Shown: positions 23,963-39,142 of the stretch, one piece after another
How the letters are laid out: each line of letters opens with the position of its first letter
How positions within the stretch are numbered: position 1 is the first letter of the stretch
Assembly: GCA_019828595.1 (NCBI GenBank)
Contig: JAHQRK010000002.1
Span: forward strand, 1,984,001-2,048,000
DNA length: 64,000 nt
Direction of reading: 5' to 3'
Source of the DNA: Aphanomyces cochlioides
Lineage: Eukaryota; Oomycota; Saprolegniomycetes; Saprolegniales; Verrucalvaceae
Made by a program: the position numbers and the translations under genes
Notes under the pieces: model-generated
Seen by the model: only the letters and a program-made list of their open reading frames with translations
What the model was told of the DNA's origin: nothing
Database searches by the model: none

Positions 23963-24192
23963 ACCCGAGAGGAGAGGTCACACAAATCCACAACAGGCAT
24001 TTGTACCGCGTATCACGAAGCAGAGACAGAATGTCGCGAGCCTTCACTCGCACTGGCTCGCTCTTGTCATGGAGACCTTTCGCCAAGACGTTCCTGGTGC
24101 CTTCGACGTAGGGGTCCAAGTCGGCTTGGGACCACGATTTCACAATGAACTCCAGTTGGCTCATGATGAGCAGCCGTACGTCATCTACGTGC
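23957..24192 (+). repeat. inverted repeat, left arm (236 bp)
   Basis: Reverse complement of 24688-24923, with only a few mismatches and no length difference. Contains the 3' end of the TOG fragment. The spacer between arms is 495 bp. Confidence 0.9.
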
Positions 24193-24680
24193 GTTCCCGT
24201 GAGGCGATAGAACAATGTGTTAGCAAACGTACCTCCACGCACCGTGTCAAAGGTGTGGATCAACTTGTTGACATCGTATCGCGAAGGACTCGCCAACACA
24301 ACCACACAATCGTCGCCGGCTTGGCAGATCTTCTGGACGTGCGACCGTGCGGCGTCGATGAGCGACACCATCATATCGTCGACAAACTGGCCCAAGGCAA
24401 AGCCGCACGTGGTCGCGAGACCGCAGAGGAATCCACGCGCTCTATGGACGACGTCGGCGCGGATCGATTCGATCCAGCAGTCAGTCTTGAAAGGTTCCTA
24501 CATACTCGAAACAATCAAAGGACATGCGCGACAAGGATTACCGTGAGAATGATCAATGTGTTGACGACGGCGTCGAGCGAGTCCACTTGGAGGACTTGTT
24601 CGACCACCGCTTCGATGTCCGCGAGGGCTTGGAGTTGTTCACTCCAAGGTGCGTGGACGTCGAATGTAGTAATCTTAAGC
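23961..24680 (-). pseudogene. CLASP-like TOG-domain fragment
   Basis: Two exons separated by a 44-nt intron (24498-24541) encode a helical repeat protein: HAPWSEQLQALADIEAVVEQ, then EPFKTDCWIESIRADVVHRA, then CGFALGQFVDDMM, and finally MSQLEFIVKSW and HDKSEPVRVKARDILSLLRD. This order fits the N-terminal TOG (CLASP_N) array, which binds tubulin at microtubule plus ends. Both gene ends are missing. On the 5' side it runs into an inverted copy of its own 3' end (24688-24923), and on the 3' side into the fatty-acid synthase fragment. Hence non-functional here. CLASP assignment rests on pattern recognition; another HEAT/TOG protein is possible. Confidence 0.65.
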
Positions 24681-24687
24681 ACGTGCT

Positions 24688-24923
24688 GCACGTAGATGAC
24701 GTACGGCTGCTCATCATGAGCCAACTGGAGTTCATTGTGAAATCGTGGTCCCAAGCCGACTTGGACCCCTACGTCGAAGGCACCAGGAACGTCCTGGCGA
24801 AAGGTCTCCATGATAAGAGCGAGCCAGTGCGAGTGAAGGCTCGCGACATTCTGTCTCTGCTTCGTGATACGCGGTACAAATGCCTGTTGTGGATTTGTGT
24901 GACCTCTTCTCTCGGGTAGGCAG
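24688..24923 (+). repeat. inverted repeat, right arm (236 bp)
   Basis: Plus-strand copy of the end of the TOG fragment (LDPYVEGTRNVLAKGLHDKS is readable). It begins inside GCACGTAG and ends at GGTAGGCA, after which the sequence becomes unrelated AT-rich DNA. Confidence 0.9.
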
Positions 24924-25239: not shown

Positions 25240-25512
25240 GTGCAACATGCTGTTTGCTCAAATTGCTTGGTGGAGCAGCTTCATCGCGAAGTCTGGGGGA
25301 TCTATTCGGTGACCATCTGGTGGAGTCTGACTCCATGTGGTATCCATATCTGGCGATATCTTAGAGTTTGTATGGTTCATGGCGACGCTTGACTAAACCG
25401 CGGAATCTCGCCAAGGATGCGGAGTCCAAGACACACGGTTCTTCCAAGCGCTGGCCCTTGGCTAGCAAGGGCACCTTGTAGTCATTGTTGGCTTGACGTT
25501 TCCGGCATCACA
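25240..25512 (-). repeat. inverted 5' part of the retrotransposon LTR
   Basis: Reverse complement of LTR bases 1-273 (37753-38025), including the LTR tip TGTGATGCCGGA at 25512-25501. About 3% of positions differ from the 3' LTR. It stops at exactly the LTR position where the 5' LTR remnant at 27023 begins (two-base AC overlap). The base run outside the tip is GGGG (read outward), matching GGGG after the 3' LTR end at 38491. Confidence 0.88.
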
Positions 25513-27022: not shown

Positions 27023-27490
27023 ACCCAACAAGACATTCGAACAGCGTGAGCCGCGCAGACCAACCAAAACAAGAACCCAGGATAGATTAACTTTGAATTC
27101 ACTCTTCTTTTTGCCTCGCTTACCAATCCTGTGAGTTTGCGGCGTGGCCAGAAGTGTACCCAAGTCCAAGACAGTTTGAGAGTTCCGCCGGCTGCCTCGA
27201 GAGAAGCCGACACCGATTGAATCCTTCCCCCATTGCCCTGCATCAGCGTCAGCCACAGCTAGACGTAGTACTCGGGCCATAGTACAACCTCCTCCGAAGT
27301 CTCACGCATACGCGAGTGTCTCTGCGTGACTCCAAGGAAGAATCCGACTCCAACTCTCTGCCTAACCTTGCCCTCCATCAACCTTGCTTGCTGCCTCGGG
27401 TGTCTGCGTTGATCTTGGTCCCACCTAAGATCCAGCTTTTCAACCCCTTCTAATTTTCTTGCGGCTACGACCTACATTCCCGTTCCCACA
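27023..27490 (+). repeat. 5' LTR, 3' 468 bp only
   Basis: Identical, without gaps, to 38024-38491. It ends CCCGTTCCCACA. The first ~271 bp of the LTR are missing here and lie inverted at 25240-25512. Confidence 0.93.
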
Positions 27491-27492
27491 AG

Positions 27493-27520: not shown

Positions 27521-28899
27521 ATGAGTAGCTCTCCCCTTGCAACTAGTATGGTTGATTCTGCTATCACAAATCACAATTTGTCTACGGCTGAAGTACTCTT
27601 AGCCGAACTAAACCCTCACGCCAGTGTGAGCTCCAATGATGACCCACGCGCTCCCTTGAGAGAAGAGTCCGTGCCCTCGCACCCTTGGGTGCAAAATATC
27701 CCCTCGACGATGAATGGACATTCTCTCGCGTCCAACGCCACGCGTCGAAACTTTGGCAGCCTTGCTGCATCCGAGCACGATGACCACCAGCGTCCGGGTG
27801 ACGTCGTTGCACGCGCCGATATGCTTGCGCTCTTCCGTGCTCAGAGCGAGAATTTGATTGCACTCATTCAACGCTCCCGAAAACATTCCCTGGATGATGA
27901 ATTCGACTACCCAGATGACCCTGACGATGAGCCTCCTCCAATTGGACGACGAATCGAAGGAAACCAAGTCCAAATCCTACCAGTGGAGTCCTTACCCACG
28001 TTCAAAGGCGACTCAGAAGGAAGAGATGCCGCTGGAGCCTGGCTCCAGAGATTTGAAGAGACAGCCGTCTCCTGTGGGTGGACCGACGTGGAAACGAAAC
28101 GGCGATTTCGTCTGCATGCAGCCCGACCAGTACAAGACTGGTTTGCACAATTGGATCCACGCTACAAAGTCAAATGGGGCACCATCCGATCCGCTTTGTA
28201 AAGGAGTTCGTGCAGAGTCTAATCCCAAACGAAGAGATCTATTACACCATGAAGCAGCGTCCTGGAGAATCCAACAAAGCTTACCTATTCCGCTTCAATG
28301 CCGCTGCACGAAAGATCAACCTAGACTACGTGGACAATCGAAGGAACCTTCGGCTCCATATCAAGCGATACGCCCGAGCACTAATGGATAAGACATTTGG
28401 CGCAACATTACTGCCCATCGGATTCCAATCCATGATGGAACTTGAAGAGCATCTCGACACTCAGCGCGAAAATGAAGCCATGAAGGCGTTTGAACATGGA
28501 ATCAAAGAGTCCGCCTCTCCACCGTTCCCCAGAACCAAACGCAAGGTTGCCTACATGGAATCGGACTCCTCAATGGATCTAACTGAAGCGTTGCGAGCGG
28601 AGGTTTACGCTCTTGGACGAGGCCCACTCAAACGAGAACTATGCCAAGAGTGTGGCGAAGAACACTACAAGCCGGATGGGAAGTGTTGGGCCAACACGAT
28701 GTGCTCCTTATGCCAACGCAAAGGTCACCCTGACTCCAATTGCTTCAAGGCATGCGCTATGTGCAAGACTCCAAGTTATGTTCCTCACCTGAAGACCGAC
28801 TTCTGCCCGCGCCAGGCCCAGATGACGAAACTCAAAGACCACCTGGAGAGGATGGGCATCGACGACGTGAGCGATCTCCTGGATTGTTTAAAAGTCTAA
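27521..28899 (+). pseudogene. retrotransposon gag, one frameshift
   Basis: Capsid-nucleocapsid polyprotein. Frame 1 (27521-28201) has a Ser/Asn-rich leader, an acidic stretch (DDEFDYPDDPDDEPPP) and the capsid signature LPTFKGDSEGRDAAGAWLQR ... WFAQLDP. At about 28195 the reading must shift by one base to continue as FVKEFVQSLIPNEEIYY and RPGESNKAYLFRFNAAARKI. The C-terminus carries a Cys/His array (CQECGEEHY, CSLCQRKGHPDSNC, CAMC), a nucleocapsid-like zinc knuckle. The shift lies mid-capsid, so a mutation is likelier than programmed frameshifting. It overlaps the pol frame. Confidence 0.85.
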
Positions 28900-31800
28900 G
28901 TCTGGGGGACCTGCAAAGCCCCAGTTGCGCCGGACATCGACTGCAATTACCCACCACTGAACAAAAACCGAAAAAAGAAGATAACCAAGGAAAAACCAAG
29001 AAACAACATGCATTCAAGCCCGTCATAGTACCCCAGACAAGAGACCAAGCCATGGCTCTGGACGAATATGAGGAACGATTGCGAGCCAGCGTCCGACTCC
29101 TAGCTTCCAAGCTAGCATCGGCCGCTACTCCACCCGTCATCTCAGAAGAATCCAATGCCAACAGCTTGAGCACTCCTACACCTGTAATCTGGAATATATC
29201 AAGTCCATCCCCTACGATTGCTCCACAAGTATTCTTCGCCAACGAGGATAGCGCAACTATGCCTCAGCAACTCAGTCTACTCGCGGGAGAACGACTTGGA
29301 TTCTGGCGAACCAGCGAAGTGGATCATGAAGCTCACTGTCAAGCTTTCTTGGACGCGAAAATTCTGAACGAACCTGCTGTGGTCCTTGCCGACACTGGTG
29401 CCAACATGAGCGTACTACACACCCGATTTGCGGAAAGGCTAGGTCTGCGAGTAGACGCCTCCACCAAAACGGGAATCGATGGGTTTGGAAATGGATCGGC
29501 CACCACCGCTGGCACTGTCCCGATCAAGCTGACCATTGGAGACGGACTGACATATCTCTTCACGATTGCAGTCTGCGATTTTGGACCAGTCGGATTCCAC
29601 GCCATCCTTGGCATGGACTTCTTGGAGAAGGCAGGCATGATTATTGACACTGTGAAGCGAGAGATCCAACTCCCGGATGACAATTGGATCCCACTAGTAC
29701 TGCAGCCCATCAAGTACCGACGAGGGAGAGTCGACACTGTCACGACTCCACGGCAAATACAACTTCAGCCTGGAGACAGCATCTGCATCAAACTACCATC
29801 TCCAAGACCAGGATTAACCAACGCACCAGAATTTTGGGTTCAGCGAGGAGCCCGATGGGTTACCACGGCCATTGTCGACGACTCAGGCACTCCTAGGTCA
29901 TATCGAGTCACCAATGTGGGAAATTCGCTACTTGTGTTACCACCCCACTCAATTGTTGGAGCTATCTCCGCTCCAGGTGACCGACCCAATGACCACACCA
30001 TGGTGCGCACTAACAGTCTGCGATATAAGGAATGGAAGGCCGCAACCTACGAAGGAAGTTATTCAACACGGTACCAACGAATGCGAGACCAAGTCATGGC
30101 GGGTGACTGCCCTGAAATGCCTTACACGGACAGGCCACCAAGAGCTCCCCCAGAAGCACTCCTAACCCAGTCAGGAATTAGAAGACTGACCCAAAGAGAG
30201 GCTGACGCCAAACCTGGAGACGTCGACGCAAGAAAAGACTTGGTTGGAGGAGACGGACATGAAGCAGTACTGGTGGACGACTCCACCAGGCAGGAGTCCA
30301 ACTTCTCATACTTCACCATAGAACATCACCATGGGCTCCCTCCTCCAAGTATCTTTACCTTGCAGGCGCCTCCTCCTGATCTTGATCAAAAGACACTACC
30401 TTCGGAAGTGGTCATCAGAGAAGGGGTCGATCTGACATCAGAAGAGATGGAGAGTCAGCTAGCTCTCATTCCAGAGATTCCCCCTCAAGTGCCTTTCGAT
30501 ATGGACCAACTGGACTACGGGAAAGTCGGACAATCCGAAGAAGAACGACAGCAGATGCGCGAAGTGCTCGACAAATACAAGGCATACTTCATCCAGTCTG
30601 GGAACGGCCTCCCACCTCCAGTGCGAGGAACTGTTTGCGACATTGACGTGGGATCAGCTAAACCCATCGCCCACCGGCCGAGACGAGTCCGCCCTGAACA
30701 CCTCCAAAAGCTGTTTGAATTACTCCGAGGACTCCTCAGCTATGGACTTATCACCTTCTCCAACTCTCAGTGGGCGTCCCCAATTGTAATCGTACTCAAG
30801 AAGGGTAGATCTGATATCCGACTCTGCATCGACTACCGTGGAATCAACGACCTCCAGGAACTGATGAGGTTTCCAATGCCTACCTTGGACGCCATGCTAT
30901 CAGGCTTCCATGCGGTGCAGTGGCTCCTATCCCTCGACAATGCCAGTGGTTTCTGGGTGGTGCGTGCAACCAAACGAGCGCGACTCATTAGCGCTTTCAT
31001 TTGCCCTTTGGGACACTTTGAGTGGACACGTATGGGTCAAGGATTGAAGAATGCGCCGATGATCTATCAAAGAATGATCACTAATGCGCTCTATGGCTTT
31101 GTCGATCTGCAGCCGGGAATGAACGAGGTTGACGAAGACGGTGAGCCCCGAGACATGTTCCAAATCGGTCATGTGCGCGATGCCTCCTCGATGCCAGCCC
31201 CAGCAAACCGACCCTCGTTTGTCGATGACATCAGCGATGGGGCGGATACGTGGACTGGAGTCGTGGACCTCACAGATCGCATTCTGCAACGACTAACCTA
31301 CTTCAACATCAGCATCAGCGCCCTCAAGAGCAAGGTCGGGAAGACGGTTGTCGACTTTTTGGGGCATCTTATCTCGCGGGAGGGAGTCCACGCAAAGCCC
31401 CGAGGACTCCATCAGGTCCTGCAAATGCCCTTCCCCAAATCGCTTCGAGTCATGCAATCCTTCCTGGGATCCATCAACTTCTACTCCAGGTTCATCGAGA
31501 ACTACTCCATTAAAGCCAGCTGCCTATACGAGATATCAGATGACCAGCTGCGCCAAGGGTCTGTCTCCTCGGCTGCTTTGGCTGCGTTCGGTGAGCTCAA
31601 ACGTGCCTACGCTAGCACTCCAGTCCTCAAGCACGCCAACCCGAACCTTCCCTTCCACGTGCTGCTCTACGTCACGAACTGGGCCATATCGGCCACCCTA
31701 TATCAAGATCATGATGGACTCCTCCATCCAGTGCGATTCTGTGGACGTGTCCTCAAAGGTGGCGAACCTCGCAACGAGCACTGGGAAAGGGAGATCCTGG

Positions 31801-34472
31801 CTCTACTACACGCCCTCAAGGTCTGCTTCTATGAGCTACGGAACAACTCGTTGACAGTGTACTCCAAGCATGCTATCATCAATTGGATCCGAAAGGACAA
31901 ACAAGGACGCACTGACCACCTCTCCTGGGCTGCAATGTTATCTCCATGGACAATTCAAGTGGTGGACTCCTCCAACCTTCAAGGACTCGATGGCATCCCG
32001 ATGATGCTGGCCTCCTCACTTTGCCCGCCATCGGACTCTACAATGGACGATCTTACACTATACACCCCTTTGAAGTCCACGAGATCTCTGACTCCAGTGC
32101 AACAGAGCCTACCGTGTTTCACCGCCGAAGAGTCCGCTGTCATAGCTACATTTGACGGCTCCATCAAATTTTCTGAACGAGTGGGTGGTTTTGGTGCGAT
32201 CCTGTGGCAGCTACCCGAGTGGAAGATCCTATGGGCCGGATATGGCGTTGTCACAGACACTACAGTCAATGGGGCCGAATATGCAGGTCTCCTCGCGGTA
32301 CTATCAGCAGCTATCCGCCTCCACCTCACCAGCGTCCGAGTCTTTGGAGATTCACGGCTTGTTATCCAGCAGGTACTCAATCGGATGAGGTGTACCAAGC
32401 CCCACTTGCAGACACTGCTTGCTGAAGTTCACACGCTCAACAACCAGCTTGCCAGTCCGTCATTCCATCATGTGAAACGCGTGTGGAACGGTGCAGCCCA
32501 TTACCTGGCTTCAGGCTTAACCGACCGGACGACAGGTGAGGTGACCGATCCCTCTACGCTCGATTTACTGCACTCTTTAAACTGGCTGCCGCACCTTGTC
32601 CACGACATCCGATTTCCACTCCCGGAGCACCTACAATACTTGGCTCAACCTGACTCCACTGCGGCGTCGTCTCGGTCTCGGGGTGGCGTCGTGTGTAAGC
32701 CTGGCGATACCCCCCCATCAATTTTTGCTATCACGGCCTCACGCGGAACCATTCTAGTAGTCCAAAGACAAGAGTCCGACACCCTGGCACATATCCGCCT
32801 TCAACGAATATCCCGCGCACAAGATCGAGAAAAGAAATGGGCCAACATGAAGAAGTACATCAGAGGCGAGTTTGACGGTCTATCCCAACGAGAATGTCAA
32901 CAAATGGCCAAGACGGTGCATCAGTTCGATATATGCGAAGAAGGAGCCCTCTACCTACTCCTCTGGTCAACCAAACGGAGTCCGACTCCTCAACTCACTT
33001 GGTCACTAGTCATACCACGATCCCTAGTGACTGAAATCCTCCAGCAATGTCATGATGGAGTCCAAGGAGGACATTTCAAGTTCATGAAGACCTACGCTAA
33101 AGCCAAAGCCTTCTACTACTGGGATTCGATGTATGCGGATACCAAAACTTACTGCGAAAACTGCGAAACTTGCGCTACTGGCGCTCCTTCACCGCACATC
33201 AAAGCACCATGCCCAGGCAATCTTCTGCCGCAAAGACCCATGGACATCGTATGCTTCGACATTGGAACAGACCTCCCTAAGTCCTTCCGCGGAAACACTC
33301 AACTAGTCCTCTTCGAAGATATATTTACAGCGATGGTCATGGTCAAGGCTACACCAAACAGACATGCCCACACAATTGCTCAAGCATATGAATAGGCGGT
33401 CTTCAGAAGGTTTGGTGCCTGCAGAGAGCTCAGACATGACCGAGAACCCAGTTTCATGAGTGAGGTACTCAAACACTTTGCAGCAATACTCGGTCTGTGT
33501 CAGTCTCCTACCTTTGCATACCGACCTCAAGCCAATGGTACCGCTGAACGAGGAATCCAGACTATCACAAGGATGGTGAAATTGTACATCCAGGACCCAC
33601 ACCAACGAGACTGGGACGACGTAGCCGAACGAATGGTCTTTGCCCTGAACACCTCAGTGTCGGCCACCAGGAAGGAGGCCCCATTCTTCCTGATGCATGG
33701 GTGGGATCCGTACACCACCATGATGGCTAGTTTACCATCCGTGAAGACGGACGCCAACTTGGATTCATATGAATGGAGACTGCAACTTTACCACCAATAC
33801 GCTCATTGTATGGACATGGCCCGTCTACTGGTCAAACAAGCTGTGGAAGAACGAGCCAGACGACACAATGAAGGACTCCCGGCTGATGTTGACACTCGAA
33901 TCAGAGTGGTCGACGCAGTATGGGTCTATATCGACAAAGTCAAGCCAGGAGTCAAGCTCAAGCTTGCTCACCTCTGGCATGGACCATTCAGAGTGGTGAA
34001 TCGACCGAAAAATTACGCCAGCGAAGTCGAAGTCATAAGCTTGAAATCAGGAAAGAACCATCGCTTCTACACGACTATTCATGATTCTCGCTTGAAGACA
34101 CGACGACTGAGTCCCCTGAGGCCAACTGAATTACTAGAAGACATGCCTCCAGTCGACTTCGACGAAGAATTACTGCCTGACACCTCCTTTACCAATCGGC
34201 AACAGCCCATTCCAGGGACTCCTCTTCAGGTGCCCGTGGCTGTGAGGAATACTCGTCTAAATGGTGGCATCCGAGAGCTAGAAGTACAGTTGATCAATGA
34301 TGGACCATGGACTTGGGAGCCTGAAGCTCTGCTGGAGTCCACCCCCGAATTGAGGAAGTTCCATAGAGACCGACTTGGGTGGAGTCGGCTAACAAGGATG
34401 GTCGATGATGATTTGAACCCAGCCCCCACCGCTCCTGAAGGGCCTCTTCAAGAAGCGGCTACAACGGTGTAA
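28900..34472 (+). pseudogene. retrotransposon pol: protease, RT, two RNase H domains, integrase; one nonsense codon
   Basis: The frame is open from 28740; the part before ~28900 overlaps gag. Protease: VLADTGANMSVLH and HAILGMDFL. RT: WASPIVIVLKKG, RLCIDYRGIND, FVDDISDG (FVDD in place of the usual YxDD), FLGHLISREGVHAKP. First RNase H: LLYVTNWAISATLYQ and EREILALLHALK. A second RNase H follows (ATFDGSIKFSERVGGFGAIL, NGAEYAGLLAVLSAAI, VFGDSRLVIQQVLN). Integrase: an HHCC finger (CENCETC), CFDIGTD, RHDREPSFMSE and YRPQANGTAERG for D, D and E. A TAG at 33393-33395 falls between the two catalytic Asp. A chromodomain-like tail (GPWTWEPEALLESTPELRKF) ends the protein. Confidence 0.92.
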
Positions 34473-34620: not shown

Positions 34621-36879
34621 CTACTTCTTGGAAGATCCCTTACCACCGTCAGCTGCAGCAGTCTTTCTGGCCGCTCGTCGTTCTCGCTTAATAGCGGCCG
34701 TTCGCCGAGTGACTGGAACCAGCAGCAAGAAAATACAATTCGCCACTTGACGCCGCCGTTCTCGCTCTAGTTCCGCAGGAAGGAGCTCCTCGGCTTTGTG
34801 CTTTCCGCAACTTCCCAAAGGATTCAGGCATGCAACCCGACTTGTGCCAACGAAGCCGCAACGAACACGGTTGGGATACTTGGCGCTTGGTTCAAAAGGA
34901 AGATTCTTCGCGGCCTTCAGCTCGTCAGCCGAGATACCCAACATCCGAGAATAAACATCCCAGTCGTGCTCAGACAAGGCGCTTGGTTGCTCACCAGTGT
35001 TGGATGCTTGAACAGGCAGGGACTCCACTTGAGAAGACCCAGAAGGATCCTCCTCCGAATCAGGCTCGCTCGGCAAGTTGTCTTGACCACCGGCAGCTGG
35101 GGATGCCACTGCTGAATCTGACGCGACTTCGTCCTGCCATCCTCCTTCAGCCGGGGCAGATGGCGCCGCGAGCGGAAGAGCCGAAGACTGAACCACTGAT
35201 GATGACTGCTCCAACTGGCCGAGACGATCATTCATTTTTGCGGCAACCTGTGGCCACGCGCGGGCAGTCTCCTCCAGCTTCCTCAGTCGATCTTCATAGG
35301 TGGATGCTACAGAACCCGGGACAGCCGTGGCAGAAGGCGCAAGAGCCCCGATCTGGCCCAAGATGTCATTTATGGTGTCGATCTTCTTGAGTATTTCCTG
35401 GTCCTATCAGAAGATTAACCAAAAGCCAAAAGAGAGACCACTCACATGCTGAGCACGCGACGCTTCCACTGCAGAGAACTGGGCTTCCAACTCAGCCAAA
35501 CGCGAGCCTAAGGAAACGTTTGCCTTCTCGGACGCATCCAAACGCCCAGACAATTGTTCGACCTCGAGGGAGACGTTAGCCGAGAAAGAGACCACACTGC
35601 CAGACAGGGCCACGGAGGCTTGCTGAAGGGCTCTCAACTTCTTGCGCACAACATCTTGATCGAAGCCTTCGGCTACCTGCTCGTGCAACTCAGTGGCAGT
35701 CTGCAACAACGCTCGCTGTGCCAGCACAATCTCCTGAGCGGCAGGACGCAAGGAGTCCGAGTCCGGCAAGGATCTCTCCCAGCCAGCTATCAAGTCGCCC
35801 CGCATGATTGGTTGTGGGTCAGCGATCATAACGGTCGGCAGAGACTTCGAAGAGCCACTAGTATCACCGTCCGATTCGCTCAATTCCAAAGTACCAGAGT
35901 CGGACTCCTCCGCTTTGGAGTCTTCTCCTTTCCTCGAGAGCCCAGCTCCATCCTTGGCAGTTGTGGTTGAAAGAGCCGACGTCGGAGGAGCACTGGCCGG
36001 CACAATGCGTGGCAAGTATCGCAGCATCACCTCACCATCGACTGTGGCAGTTGTCAAGGAGTCTTCGACTTCGGCCCGCCAAGAGCGCTCAGCCAATATG
36101 CTTGCTTCGGCATCCGCCTCCTCGGCATTTGACTCATCCTCCCATGAAACCGTGAAATCGGAGTCTTCGAGGGGCGCTTCCGCATGTGCACTTGAAGAGA
36201 CTGGCTCCTCCTTGATGCAAAAGATTGGAGGAGCTGCAACATCCAACACAGACGACGATGGCGCCCTTGACTTTCGAAGAGTGTGGAGCGACGTCGCAAA
36301 GCCGCAAGGATGGTCCACCTCGGGATCAAACACTCTCGCTTCAATTCTGTTGGGCCGATACTCGAACTCGTGGCCAGGCGTATCGGAGCTGGGCGAACCA
36401 AAGATCTCCGCCTCGCTTTCGGTGATCTCAATTGCTGGCCGGTAAAGATCGTGACGATCGTACACCCACTCATCACAAGAAGACGCCGATGAAGACGGAG
36501 TGGACGGCGCTGAATATGGTGGCGCCGGAGGAAGAGCCAACAGAGGTGGCAAGACAAAGTCGGACGTGACAGGCGTTCGTTTCGTCACATGACGTCGTCT
36601 CGACGAACGATCGTATGAATCACCCTTGGCTGAATAGCCGAGGACTACCGGGGGCGGACGCATGCCAGAGAGGACAGAGCCCAAAAGACTGGAACGGCGC
36701 GAGACTTGTGCAGATGATTGGGACTCCAACTGGACGGAAGAGTCCACCAGGACCGGAAGCGACTGACGACGAAAGCGGGCCATGTGCTCAGCAACCGCAT
36801 CAATCGCCCATTGACCGGCCTTGGGTGGGTGTGCAGACTTAGTTGGCTTGGTCTCTTGATGAGCTGACATGAAAATCAA
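34621..36879 (-). CDS. spliced antisense gene inside the retrotransposon
   Basis: Opposite strand to gag-pol, downstream of integrase. Exons 35446-36879 and 34621-35403 join across a 42-nt GT-AG intron (35404-35445) in frame, giving about 735 aa from the ATG at 36870. No homologue is recognised. The N-terminal two thirds are Ser/Asp/Glu/Pro-rich and disordered-looking (DDSSVQLE-like runs, phosphosite-rich). Residues ~390-520 are heptad-like (coiled coil, both sides of the intron). The C-terminus has a short Cys/His cluster (CGFVGTSRVACLNPLGSCGKH) and a very basic tail (RRTAAIKRERRAARKTAA). An upstream exon may exist at 36995-37705. Long open frames free of stops argue it is or was expressed. 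Confidence 0.68.
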
Positions 36880-36994
36880 GAATGTTCGACACGTACCGAG
36901 ATCAAAAAGAGAAAAGACACCAACAGCCGGGAATTGACGAGAATGTATTGGTCAAAATTATCTGACTCCAAATGACGCGCCGGGCAAGTAGACT

Positions 36995-37705
36995 TCAAGT
37001 TCTCGCAAGGCTTGCGCTTGGTGGTGAACATACCGCAGAGTTCACCACTGCAGCGACTTCCTCGGACCCGATATCGGTGGTCGCCCGCACGGCGCGCGGG
37101 ACATGTATCGTATGGCTCAAGGCACATCTCACCAGACTCCAGATCCAACACCCCGCAAATCCGTTACGTCCGACAGCCGTCAATTGGTCCACCGCAAGCT
37201 TGAGCCGGCCGACTTCTTCGATCAACTTCTCTATGGCAGCCCGATGGATATCAGATTGGCGTTCAAGATTGACCAAGTAACGCGCTTGGTTGACCAATTC
37301 CTCAGCTACATCCTCGCTGAAAGGACTGGGACCAGCTCCCACGGGCTCACAGTCGCTCTGAGTATCCGATTCCTCCTGTGTTGAAGGAGCTCGACTCATC
37401 CCCGGAGTCGGGCGCTTCTCGGCCGACTCAGTCCCACGAGACGGTGTATGATCCGTCGACGAAGGAGCAGTGGCAGGAGCTGAAGAAGCCTCGTGCAGCA
37501 CCGTTGGAGGTTCTGGGGACGCCGTGTCATTCGATGAAGCAGGTGCTTGAGACGAACTGGCTACCCTTTTGGATACGCGCCGTGGCTTGCTGAGGTCATC
37601 TTGCGAAGACATCGGACGTTTTGCTTCAAAATCAGATGAGTCACTCGTCAGCACAGAATGACTGCGAGCGATACGAGACTGGCGTTGCGAAGGTAAAACT
37701 GGCAT
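36995..37705 (-). CDS. antisense ORF, possible first exon of the antisense gene
   Basis: An open frame of 236 codons ending about 50 bp inside the 3' LTR boundary. It is rich in Ser, Pro, Thr and Ala, with one amphipathic helix (NQARYLVNLERQSDIHRAAI) that looks like a coiled coil. Composition matches the antisense gene that follows on the same strand, and a good donor (GTGAGATG) lies near 37130. I could not find a splice that keeps the frame into 36879, so the joining is unresolved. Confidence 0.45.
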   Translation of the reverse strand: MPVLPSQRQSRIARSHSVLTSDSSDFEAKRPMSSQDDLSKPRRVSKRVASSSQAPASSNDTASPEPPTVLHEASSAPATAPSSTDHTPSRGTESAEKRPTPGMSRAPSTQEESDTQSDCEPVGAGPSPFSEDVAEELVNQARYLVNLERQSDIHRAAIEKLIEEVGRLKLAVDQLTAVGRNGFAGCWIWSLVRCALSHTIHVPRAVRATTDIGSEEVAAVVNSAVCSPPSASLART

Positions 37706-37752: not shown

Positions 37753-38491
37753 TGTGATGCCGGAAAAGTCAAGCCAACAATGACTACAAGGTGCCCTTGC
37801 TAGCCAAGGGCCAGCGCTTGGAAGGACCGTATGTCTTGGACTCCACATCCATGGCGAGATTCCGCGGTTTAGTCAAGCGTCCCCATGAACCATACAAACT
37901 CTAAGATATCGCCAGATATGGATACCACATGGAGTCAGACTCCACCAGATGGCCACCGAATAGATCCCCCAGACTTCGCGATGAAGCTGCTCCACCAAGC
38001 AATTTGAGTAAACAGCATGTTGCACCCAACAAGACATTCGAACAGCGTGAGCCGCGCAGACCAACCAAAACAAGAACCCAGGATAGATTAACTTTGAATT
38101 CACTCTTCTTTTTGCCTCGCTTACCAATCCTGTGAGTTTGCGGCGTGGCCAGAAGTGTACCCAAGTCCAAGACAGTTTGAGAGTTCCGCCGGCTGCCTCG
38201 AGAGAAGCCGACACCGATTGAATCCTTCCCCCATTGCCCTGCATCAGCGTCAGCCACAGCTAGACGTAGTACTCGGGCCATAGTACAACCTCCTCCGAAG
38301 TCTCACGCATACGCGAGTGTCTCTGCGTGACTCCAAGGAAGAATCCGACTCCAACTCTCTGCCTAACCTTGCCCTCCATCAACCTTGCTTGCTGCCTCGG
38401 GTGTCTGCGTTGATCTTGGTCCCACCTAAGATCCAGCTTTTCAACCCCTTCTAATTTTCTTGCGGCTACGACCTACATTCCCGTTCCCACA
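37753..38491 (+). repeat. 3' LTR, full length (739 bp)
   Basis: Starts TGTGATGCCGG and ends CCCACA (TG...CA). The start is defined by the inverted copy at 25512. No convincing polypurine tract precedes it: the bases just upstream are ACCAGGGTGGCT. It would also supply the promoter region for the antisense transcript. Confidence 0.9.
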
Positions 38492-39142
38492 GGGGCTTTC
38501 AAAATTCCGCATATTTTTAAAAAATATCCGCAAAATTCGGAAAAATTTGCGGAAATGGTGACGCTGCTCATTGGTAACACCAACAATAGCAGCATGAAGG
38601 GAAAGACACGGAGAGCAACGTCTCTGAAATGCAAGGACGTTGCTCTCCATTTCTGTCGTCGCGGAGCCTTGAAATTCCCGACGCTGCAGCCTACGTTGTA
38701 GTATGTGTCATGTCGCCTGTCGACGAAAGTATTGAACGTCCAGAGTTCTCTCGATGCAATTGTCAAAAATGTCCGCGCAAATTTCGTCGCCCGCTTTGTT
38801 CAAATACGCACGCGCCCTCTCTGTTCCGTGGCTTTGTCCACGTCGTTCCCATTCTAGTCGTTGTGCGCCACCGTCCTCCGTAAAGCGTCACGGCGCTCTT
38901 GCATCGTGCTTTGCGTGGTCTACAAGTAGACTATCATCTTGTCCAGCTCAACCAAAGTCATGTCCACTTTCATGTTGTTCATCGTGTTGTCGTTCGTCAC
39001 AACTAGCAATGGATTTTCTTGGCCTGGTCGTCTGGGTGTGAGTAGATACAAGATCGTTGGCAACATGCGCTGCGAAAGGCGCGTCCAGCAAATATTGACA
39101 CGGGAGTTCTTGCGCTCTAATCATTTTGAAATTCGCTTTGAC
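38492..39142. other. non-coding flank of the retrotransposon
   Basis: Begins with GGGG (target duplication candidate) and contains several TTCCGCA/TGCGGAA words like those near 25520, which supports both being the original insertion site. A 20-bp inverted repeat (GGAGAGCAACGTCTC... / ...GACGTTGCTCTCC, 38608-38650) is present. No gene supported. Confidence 0.45.

What the first reader, a model, noticed from the sequence alone, without database searches (positions are those of the whole stretch)
34621..37705. Large spliced antisense gene inside an LTR retrotransposon
The 3' third of the Ty3/gypsy element is open on the strand opposite to gag-pol: about 735 codons across two exons joined in frame by a 42-nt GT-AG intron, plus a further 236-codon frame upstream reaching towards the 3' LTR. 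It encodes disordered, coiled-coil and Cys/His-basic regions with no recognised relative. While gag and integrase carry disabling mutations, this gene has none, which could mean selection or host use. Antisense genes are known in a few retroelements (for example in some plant gypsy elements), but this one I cannot match to a known family.
Basis: partly seen in the sequence, partly recalled or inferred. Interest (0 to 1): 0.85.

Follow-up and report, generated by a model that had tools for sequence, protein, structure and literature searches.

The report
Selected antisense genes in oomycete retrotransposons
A family of jumping genes in a water mould carries extra genes written backwards on the opposite DNA strand, kept by natural selection over long evolutionary times, which suggests that they help the jumping gene control or complete its own life cycle.

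Summary
[quoted passage not shown] asORF2 (735 aa, two exons, 42-nt intron) is open here. Between diverged copies dN/dS is 0.16-0.51 (asORF2) and 0.12-0.29 (asORF1); close copies mostly score higher, as integrase does. The intron is 41, 42, 43 or 44 nt in different copies with GT-AG kept, which implies splicing. Relatives lie antisense downstream of integrase in about five element families: 53 of 54 asORF1 and 68 of 68 asORF2 loci that have an integrase nearby; 70 of 91 integrase loci have a partner. The proteins share coiled coils and a Cys3His motif and match no Pfam family convincingly. Antisense ORFs at this place are known in plant Tat/Retand and fungal Boty elements, so this is a new variant of a known kind. 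Most likely role (inferred): a nuclear regulator serving the element, not host domestication.

The parts
27023..27491 (+). 5' LTR, outer part missing
   Evidence: 468 of 469 bases identical to 38024-38492; primer-binding-like sequence follows
27521..28899 (+). gag, in two overlapping frames (27521-28201, 28078-28899): disrupted in this copy
   Evidence: ORF list; no significant Pfam hit; zinc knuckle by eye
28740..33395 (+). protease-RT-RNase H-second RNase H (RVT_3)-integrase zinc domain; ends at a stop not seen in other copies compared
   Evidence: Pfam hits; the stop is absent from 5 of 5 correctly oriented copies
33456..34472 (+). rest of integrase / end of pol
   Evidence: own-genome relatives, 91 merged loci; dN/dS 0.09 against three diverged copies
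34621..35403 (-). asORF2 exon 2 (260 codons + stop): end of coiled coil, Cys3His motif, basic tail
   Evidence: dN/dS 0.16-0.22 for W against four diverged copies
34798..34860 (-). Cys3His motif C-x9-C-x6-C-x2-H of asORF2
   Evidence: position; recurring motif
35404..35445 (-). asORF2 intron, GT..AG; 41, 42, 43 or 44 nt in the 11 copies
   Evidence: unspliced reading stops here; some Aphanomyces euteiches gene models join the same exons
35446..36870 (-). asORF2 exon 1 (475 codons): low-complexity acidic region, then coiled coil
   Evidence: dN/dS 0.28-0.35 for W against five diverged copies
36871..36994 (-). spacer between the two antisense genes; this copy lacks about 0.1 kb that most other copies have
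   Evidence: alignment of 12 copies
36995..37705 (-). asORF1 (264 aa with coiled coil and two Cys3His motifs in open copies); frameshifted and shortened here
   Evidence: dN/dS 0.12-0.29 between diverged copies
37753..38492 (+). 3' LTR; the asORF1 start codon lies 47 nt from it, so antisense transcription may begin in the LTR (inferred)
   Evidence: repeat boundaries; sequence context

Best explanation
The element carries its own antisense accessory-gene cassette. asORF1 and asORF2 are read from the strand opposite to gag-pol, asORF1 probably from the 3' LTR and asORF2 from a promoter before it or on the same transcript (inferred). asORF2 is spliced (shown by intron-length evolution, not by RNA). 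The products have coiled coils, acidic low-complexity stretches, Cys3His, probably zinc-binding, modules and basic segments. Most likely they enter the nucleus and bind nucleic acid or chromatin to tune the element's own transcription, RNA fate or integration (inferred, about 0.45). The genes are selected in the element lineage and decay after insertion (shown). The confidence below is for the core: selected, spliced protein genes that serve the element. The first rival is a variant of that core, so the two overlap.
For: Antisense-frame dN/dS well below 1 between diverged copies, with the other non-mirror frames at 0.77-1.94 in the five pairs tested in both exons; asORF1 likewise. A second element family confirms it (asORF1 0.11-0.12 in its two diverged pairs, codon-position p = 3.5e-19 for one). 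Intron lengths of 41, 42, 43 and 44 nt with GT..AG in 11 of 11 copies. Fixed antisense position: 53 of 54 asORF1 and 68 of 68 asORF2 loci with an integrase nearby. Cys3His motif 26 times on the antisense strand (25 distinct), 0 on the sense strand of the same 11 loci. Coiled-coil helix and two similar small modules in a low-confidence model. Acidic stretches and basic tail in the A. euteiches relatives.
Against: No RNA evidence. A recalled oomycete core-promoter pattern is not enriched (14 hits, 16.6 expected; one weak hit lies just before the asORF2 start). No known domain, so the regulatory role rests on analogy. 21 of 91 integrase loci had no detectable antisense partner. 19 of 73 asORF1 and 4 of 72 asORF2 loci had no integrase nearby and only one of these was read, so a free-standing host gene among them is not excluded. 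8 of 11 copies have a broken asORF2. Exon 1 is less constrained (0.27-0.51) than integrase (0.09). Some closer pairs of asORF1 give 0.26-0.39, others above 2, so the contrast between old and recent pairs is uneven.
Confidence: 0.8

Rival explanations
1. The antisense proteins act mainly in packaging or nuclear entry, as an extra structural or nucleic-acid-binding protein, rather than as regulators.
For: Coiled coils, basic tail and Cys3His modules would also fit a nucleocapsid-like or import role.
Against: gag already has a zinc knuckle (by eye); expression from the opposite strand suits separately timed regulation better than stoichiometric assembly (inference).
Confidence: 0.25
2. The RNA matters more than the protein: antisense transcription makes double-stranded RNA that limits the element, and the frame is incidental.
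For: Proposed for plant elements (PMC7264820, passages); pol and asORF2 are convergent with 148 nt between them.
Against: Protein-level selection in the antisense frames of two element families.
Confidence: 0.07
3. Host domestication: the host kept this copy's antisense gene for its own use.
For: asORF2 is open in the window copy while gag, pol and asORF1 are broken.
Against: Young insertion (LTRs 468 of 469); raised dN/dS between close copies; two other copies are also open; 11 of 11 copies with this asORF2 have integrase upstream.
Confidence: 0.03
4. Chance openness, a mirror of a sense gene, or a second element nested in reverse orientation.
For: The sense strand has open frames of up to 213 codons; one mirror sense frame also has low dN/dS (0.22-0.45).
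Against: That mirror frame holds 8-15 stop-containing codons per pair against 1-2 in the antisense frame; same place and orientation in about five families; the repeat search at 40 nt or more found no other direct repeat around it.
Confidence: 0.02

Closest known systems
[quoted passage not shown] TRP28 domain PF04195)
   Same: Same place and strand; found across a lineage; function unknown; Tat elements also have a second RNase H (PMC5348765, passages; that Retand belongs to Tat is recalled). PMC11963269 (passages) counts 104 antisense ORFs in Retand representatives.
   Different: No TRP28 or other convincing Pfam domain here; coiled coil plus Cys3His motif; a conserved intron; oomycete host.
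Boty antisense gene brtn (Botrytis, Sclerotinia; Zhao 2011, seen only as cited in PMC7264820)
   Same: Antisense gene between pol and 3' LTR.
   Different: Fungal; sequence not compared here.
Archon dual-RNase-H Ty3/gypsy elements of Saprolegniales (PMC5348765)
   Same: RNase H followed by a second RNase H; no chromodomain hit; nearest named relatives come from a Saprolegniales genus.
   Different: The main text has no occurrence of 'antisense' or 'opposite', and its table lists no Archon in two Aphanomyces genomes. RT relation not tested.
HTLV-1 HBZ and other retroviral antisense genes
   Same: Antisense gene with a promoter in the 3' LTR (for HTLV: PMC7264820, passages; here inferred); probably a nuclear regulator (here inferred).
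   Different: No bZIP hit; asORF2 is several times longer (HBZ size recalled).

Membership tests
Antisense aORF between pol and 3' LTR (aORF-3R) | Coding frame antisense to gag-pol, between pol and 3' LTR | tested here: met
   for the window; for orientation elsewhere (LTRs of the other families not mapped)
Antisense aORF between pol and 3' LTR (aORF-3R) | Present in most copies of the family, with protein-like conservation | tested here: met
   70 of 91 integrase loci have a partner; dN/dS
Antisense aORF between pol and 3' LTR (aORF-3R) | Antisense transcript | not testable with these tools
   No RNA data
Retand TRP28 protein | PF04195 domain in the antisense ORF | tested here: not met
   Not among the Pfam hits
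Archon | Second RNase H (RVT_3) next to the Ty3/gypsy RNase H | tested here: met
   RVT_3 also in two other families (L046, L048)
Archon | Original RNase H lacks its catalytic residues | tested here: inconclusive
   By eye in one translation: two catalytic Asp positions seem not to be Asp; no reference alignment made
Archon | RT groups with Archon in a tree | not tested
   No Archon reference sequences at hand
Archon | No chromodomain after integrase (separates it from Chronos) | tested here: met
   No Pfam hit in 33456-34469
SCA7-type zinc finger | SCA7 profile match and Cys/His spacing | tested here: inconclusive
HBZ-like | bZIP domain | tested here: not met
   Not among the Pfam hits

The most novel reading that the evidence does not exclude
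Antisense accessory genes are a recurrent, convergent partner of dual-RNase-H LTR elements. Plant Tat/Retand, these Archon-like oomycete elements and retroviruses each combine a second RNase H with separately invented antisense genes for nuclear regulators. Here that is a new family of coiled-coil Cys3His proteins that diversified into two or three genes per element.
Probability: 0.3. Interest if true: 0.8.

Novelty: new variant of a known kind. Interest (0 to 1): 0.62.

Why it matters
It shows by selection tests and intron evolution, not just by open frames, that antisense genes of LTR retrotransposons can be real, spliced protein genes, and it extends them to an oomycete with a protein family that matches nothing known. 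Plant and oomycete elements are already reported to converge in capturing a second RNase H; a shared second trait would become a testable rule about what such elements need. Dozens of related loci sit in one genome, so expression and mutational tests are feasible.

Tried and rejected
Host use of the window copy: rejected as unsupported. Mirror of a sense gene: rejected (for asORF1 the mirror frame gives 0.17-0.47 in most pairs, with 7-16 stop-containing codons). Pfam and PDB sequence matches: weak or chance hits, many coiled-coil (best Pfam Spc29, E 5.7e-4, in 2 of 10 members). SCA7 link: kept only as a lead. Oomycete core promoter (pattern recalled): no enrichment. Wider protein search with an asORF1 alignment: 13 proteins, 11 labelled A. 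euteiches and 2 unnamed. Two partnerless integrase loci (L065, L066) were read: other mobile-element sequence follows integrase and no motif was found, so they say nothing. Of the loci without integrase nearby only L047 was read: no pol frame of 200 codons or more, but its sequence downstream of asORF1 still resembles family 2 by eye, so I take it as a remnant. In one search two of seven copies (L002, L005) came from the wrong end and were left out. Family 4 copies are too alike for a useful dN/dS (0.47-0.82). C32 looks recombinant (exon 1 diverged, exon 2 close to W); copies and pairs are not independent. Four of the 53 antisense asORF1 pairings lie 5.4-8.6 kb from the integrase and may be wrong or interrupted; the one same-strand case is a 135-nt fragment beside an antisense piece.

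Full report
OBSERVATION. The antisense frame is there as described. asORF2 runs from 36870 to 34621 on the minus strand in two exons (475 and 260 codons) around a 42-nt GT-AG intron; read unspliced it stops inside the intron. The further frame, 37705-36995, is part of a second gene, asORF1, open for 264 codons in other copies. In the window copy asORF1 carries a 1-nt frameshift and lacks about 0.1 kb. The element has LTRs at 27023-27491 (outer part missing) and 37753-38492, and a pol with protease, RT, two RNase H domains and integrase zinc domain. pol ends at 34472, with 148 nt between it and the end of asORF2.

HOST AND COPIES. The window lies in a 76.2-Mb assembly of 94 contigs. The nearest named proteins are from Aphanomyces euteiches: 12 of 12 for asORF2, at 74-82% identity, and 3 of 4 for asORF1, the fourth being unnamed. 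DNA search found other copies at 76-98% identity; I compared the window with 11 other loci. Eleven loci, the window included, hold asORF2, and it is fully open in 3 of them (W, C6a, C19). asORF1 is open throughout in C13 and C29, in C19 with a 48-nt in-frame deletion, and in C14 apart from one extra base near the start.

SELECTION. Exon 1: dN/dS 0.28-0.35 for W against five diverged copies, and 0.27-0.51 over all 13 diverged pairs listed. Exon 2: 0.16-0.22 for W against four diverged copies, and 0.16-0.24 over all 12 diverged pairs listed. Close pairs: 0.51-0.89 for W against five copies in exon 1; 0.25-1.04 against six in exon 2, on few changes. asORF1: 0.12-0.29 over 11 diverged pairs; five closer pairs give 0.26, 0.26, 0.39, 2.1 and 2.3, so the rise in close pairs is uneven for this gene. 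In five pairs tested in all six frames, four of the other frames lie at 0.77-1.94 in both exons. The fifth, a sense frame whose third positions coincide with those of the antisense frame, gives 0.22-0.45 but holds 8-15 stop-containing codons per pair. As a yardstick the integrase half on the sense strand gives 0.09 for three diverged pairs and 0.50-0.66 for three close ones. So the antisense genes evolve as selected proteins in the element lineage, more loosely than integrase. A second family (fam2) shows the same: asORF1 0.11-0.12 in two diverged pairs and 0.29 in the closer one; a small extra ORF 0.09-0.15; two pieces that I take as its asORF2 0.25-0.63.

SPLICING. The intron is 42 nt in seven copies, 41 in two, 43 in one and 44 in one; the twelfth row (C6c) is deleted there. 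All eleven begin GT and end AG. Lengths that are not multiples of three, between exons that keep one frame, make sense only if the intron is removed. Some A. euteiches gene models in public databases join the same exons, others use a different donor or reading. Those are predictions, not RNA.

A WHOLE CLADE. Searches of the genome with asORF1 of two families and with integrase gave 73 and 91 merged loci. Of the 73, 54 have an integrase within 9 kb upstream, and 53 of these are antisense to it; 19 have none, 11 of them fragments under 260 nt. For asORF2 I pooled with three rows (the other 38 of its 41 rows lie at places already) into 72 loci: 68 have an integrase within 5 kb and all 68 are antisense; 4 have none. 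70 of 91 integrase loci have at least one antisense partner. The integrase list is a lower bound, as 119 of 404 candidates were scored. 'Families' are my grouping by antisense protein, not a formal classification. asORF1 is 25-32% identical between them, so the trait is probably old. Family 2 has several antisense coding regions, in the order asORF1, a small one, then two larger pieces.

WHY NOT HOST USE. The LTRs match at 468 of 469 bases, the mismatch being the last base. The insertion is therefore young, and one open antisense frame is unremarkable. The pol stop is absent from the five copies compared.

WHAT IS KNOWN. I saw passages and one section of PMC7264820, passages of PMC11963269, the abstract, outline, passages and one section of PMC5348765 and passages of PMC12477816. 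Antisense ORFs between pol and the 3' LTR are established in plant elements and reported for fungal Boty. Dual-RNase-H elements of oomycetes (Archon, Chronos) are established. My searches on antisense genes in oomycete or Aphanomyces elements listed no paper whose title or abstract start reports them; they cover open-licence papers only, one search listed 12 of 874 and 20 of 22, and I opened few of them.

MECHANISM. Shown: frame-specific selection, a reading frame that needs splicing, a fixed antisense position. Inferred: transcription from the 3' LTR, nuclear entry, zinc and nucleic-acid or chromatin binding, regulation of the element.

Noticed in passing
window 25240-25512: An inverted copy (265 of 273 bases) of the first part of the 3' LTR lies upstream of the truncated 5' LTR, as if the 5' end had been rearranged or another LTR sat there.
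   Followed up: partly
window 24000-24880: Inverted repeat arms of 193 nt, 99% complementary, 495 nt apart.
   Followed up: no
L048 (C78:1103500-1113400): Two copies of a fifth element family lie in opposite orientation as a large palindrome: 3262-nt arms, 100% complementary, 1189 nt apart, each with an antisense Cys3His ORF.
   Followed up: partly
L017 (C29), within asORF2 exon 1: About 2.8 kb of foreign sequence splits exon 1; it holds a 378-aa ORF.
   Followed up: no
C31, C32, C48, C53, C73: Five family-2 copies that mostly carry the same scores, three of them 12-24 kb from a contig start; possibly a duplicated chromosome-end region.
   Followed up: no
C32 copy (L014): Exon 1 diverged and exon 2 close to the window: looks like recombination between subfamilies.
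   Followed up: no
P0019, P0021 (A. euteiches): Gene models join a family-4 asORF1 to an unrelated lysine-rich C-terminal part; may be annotation or a real fusion.
   Followed up: no
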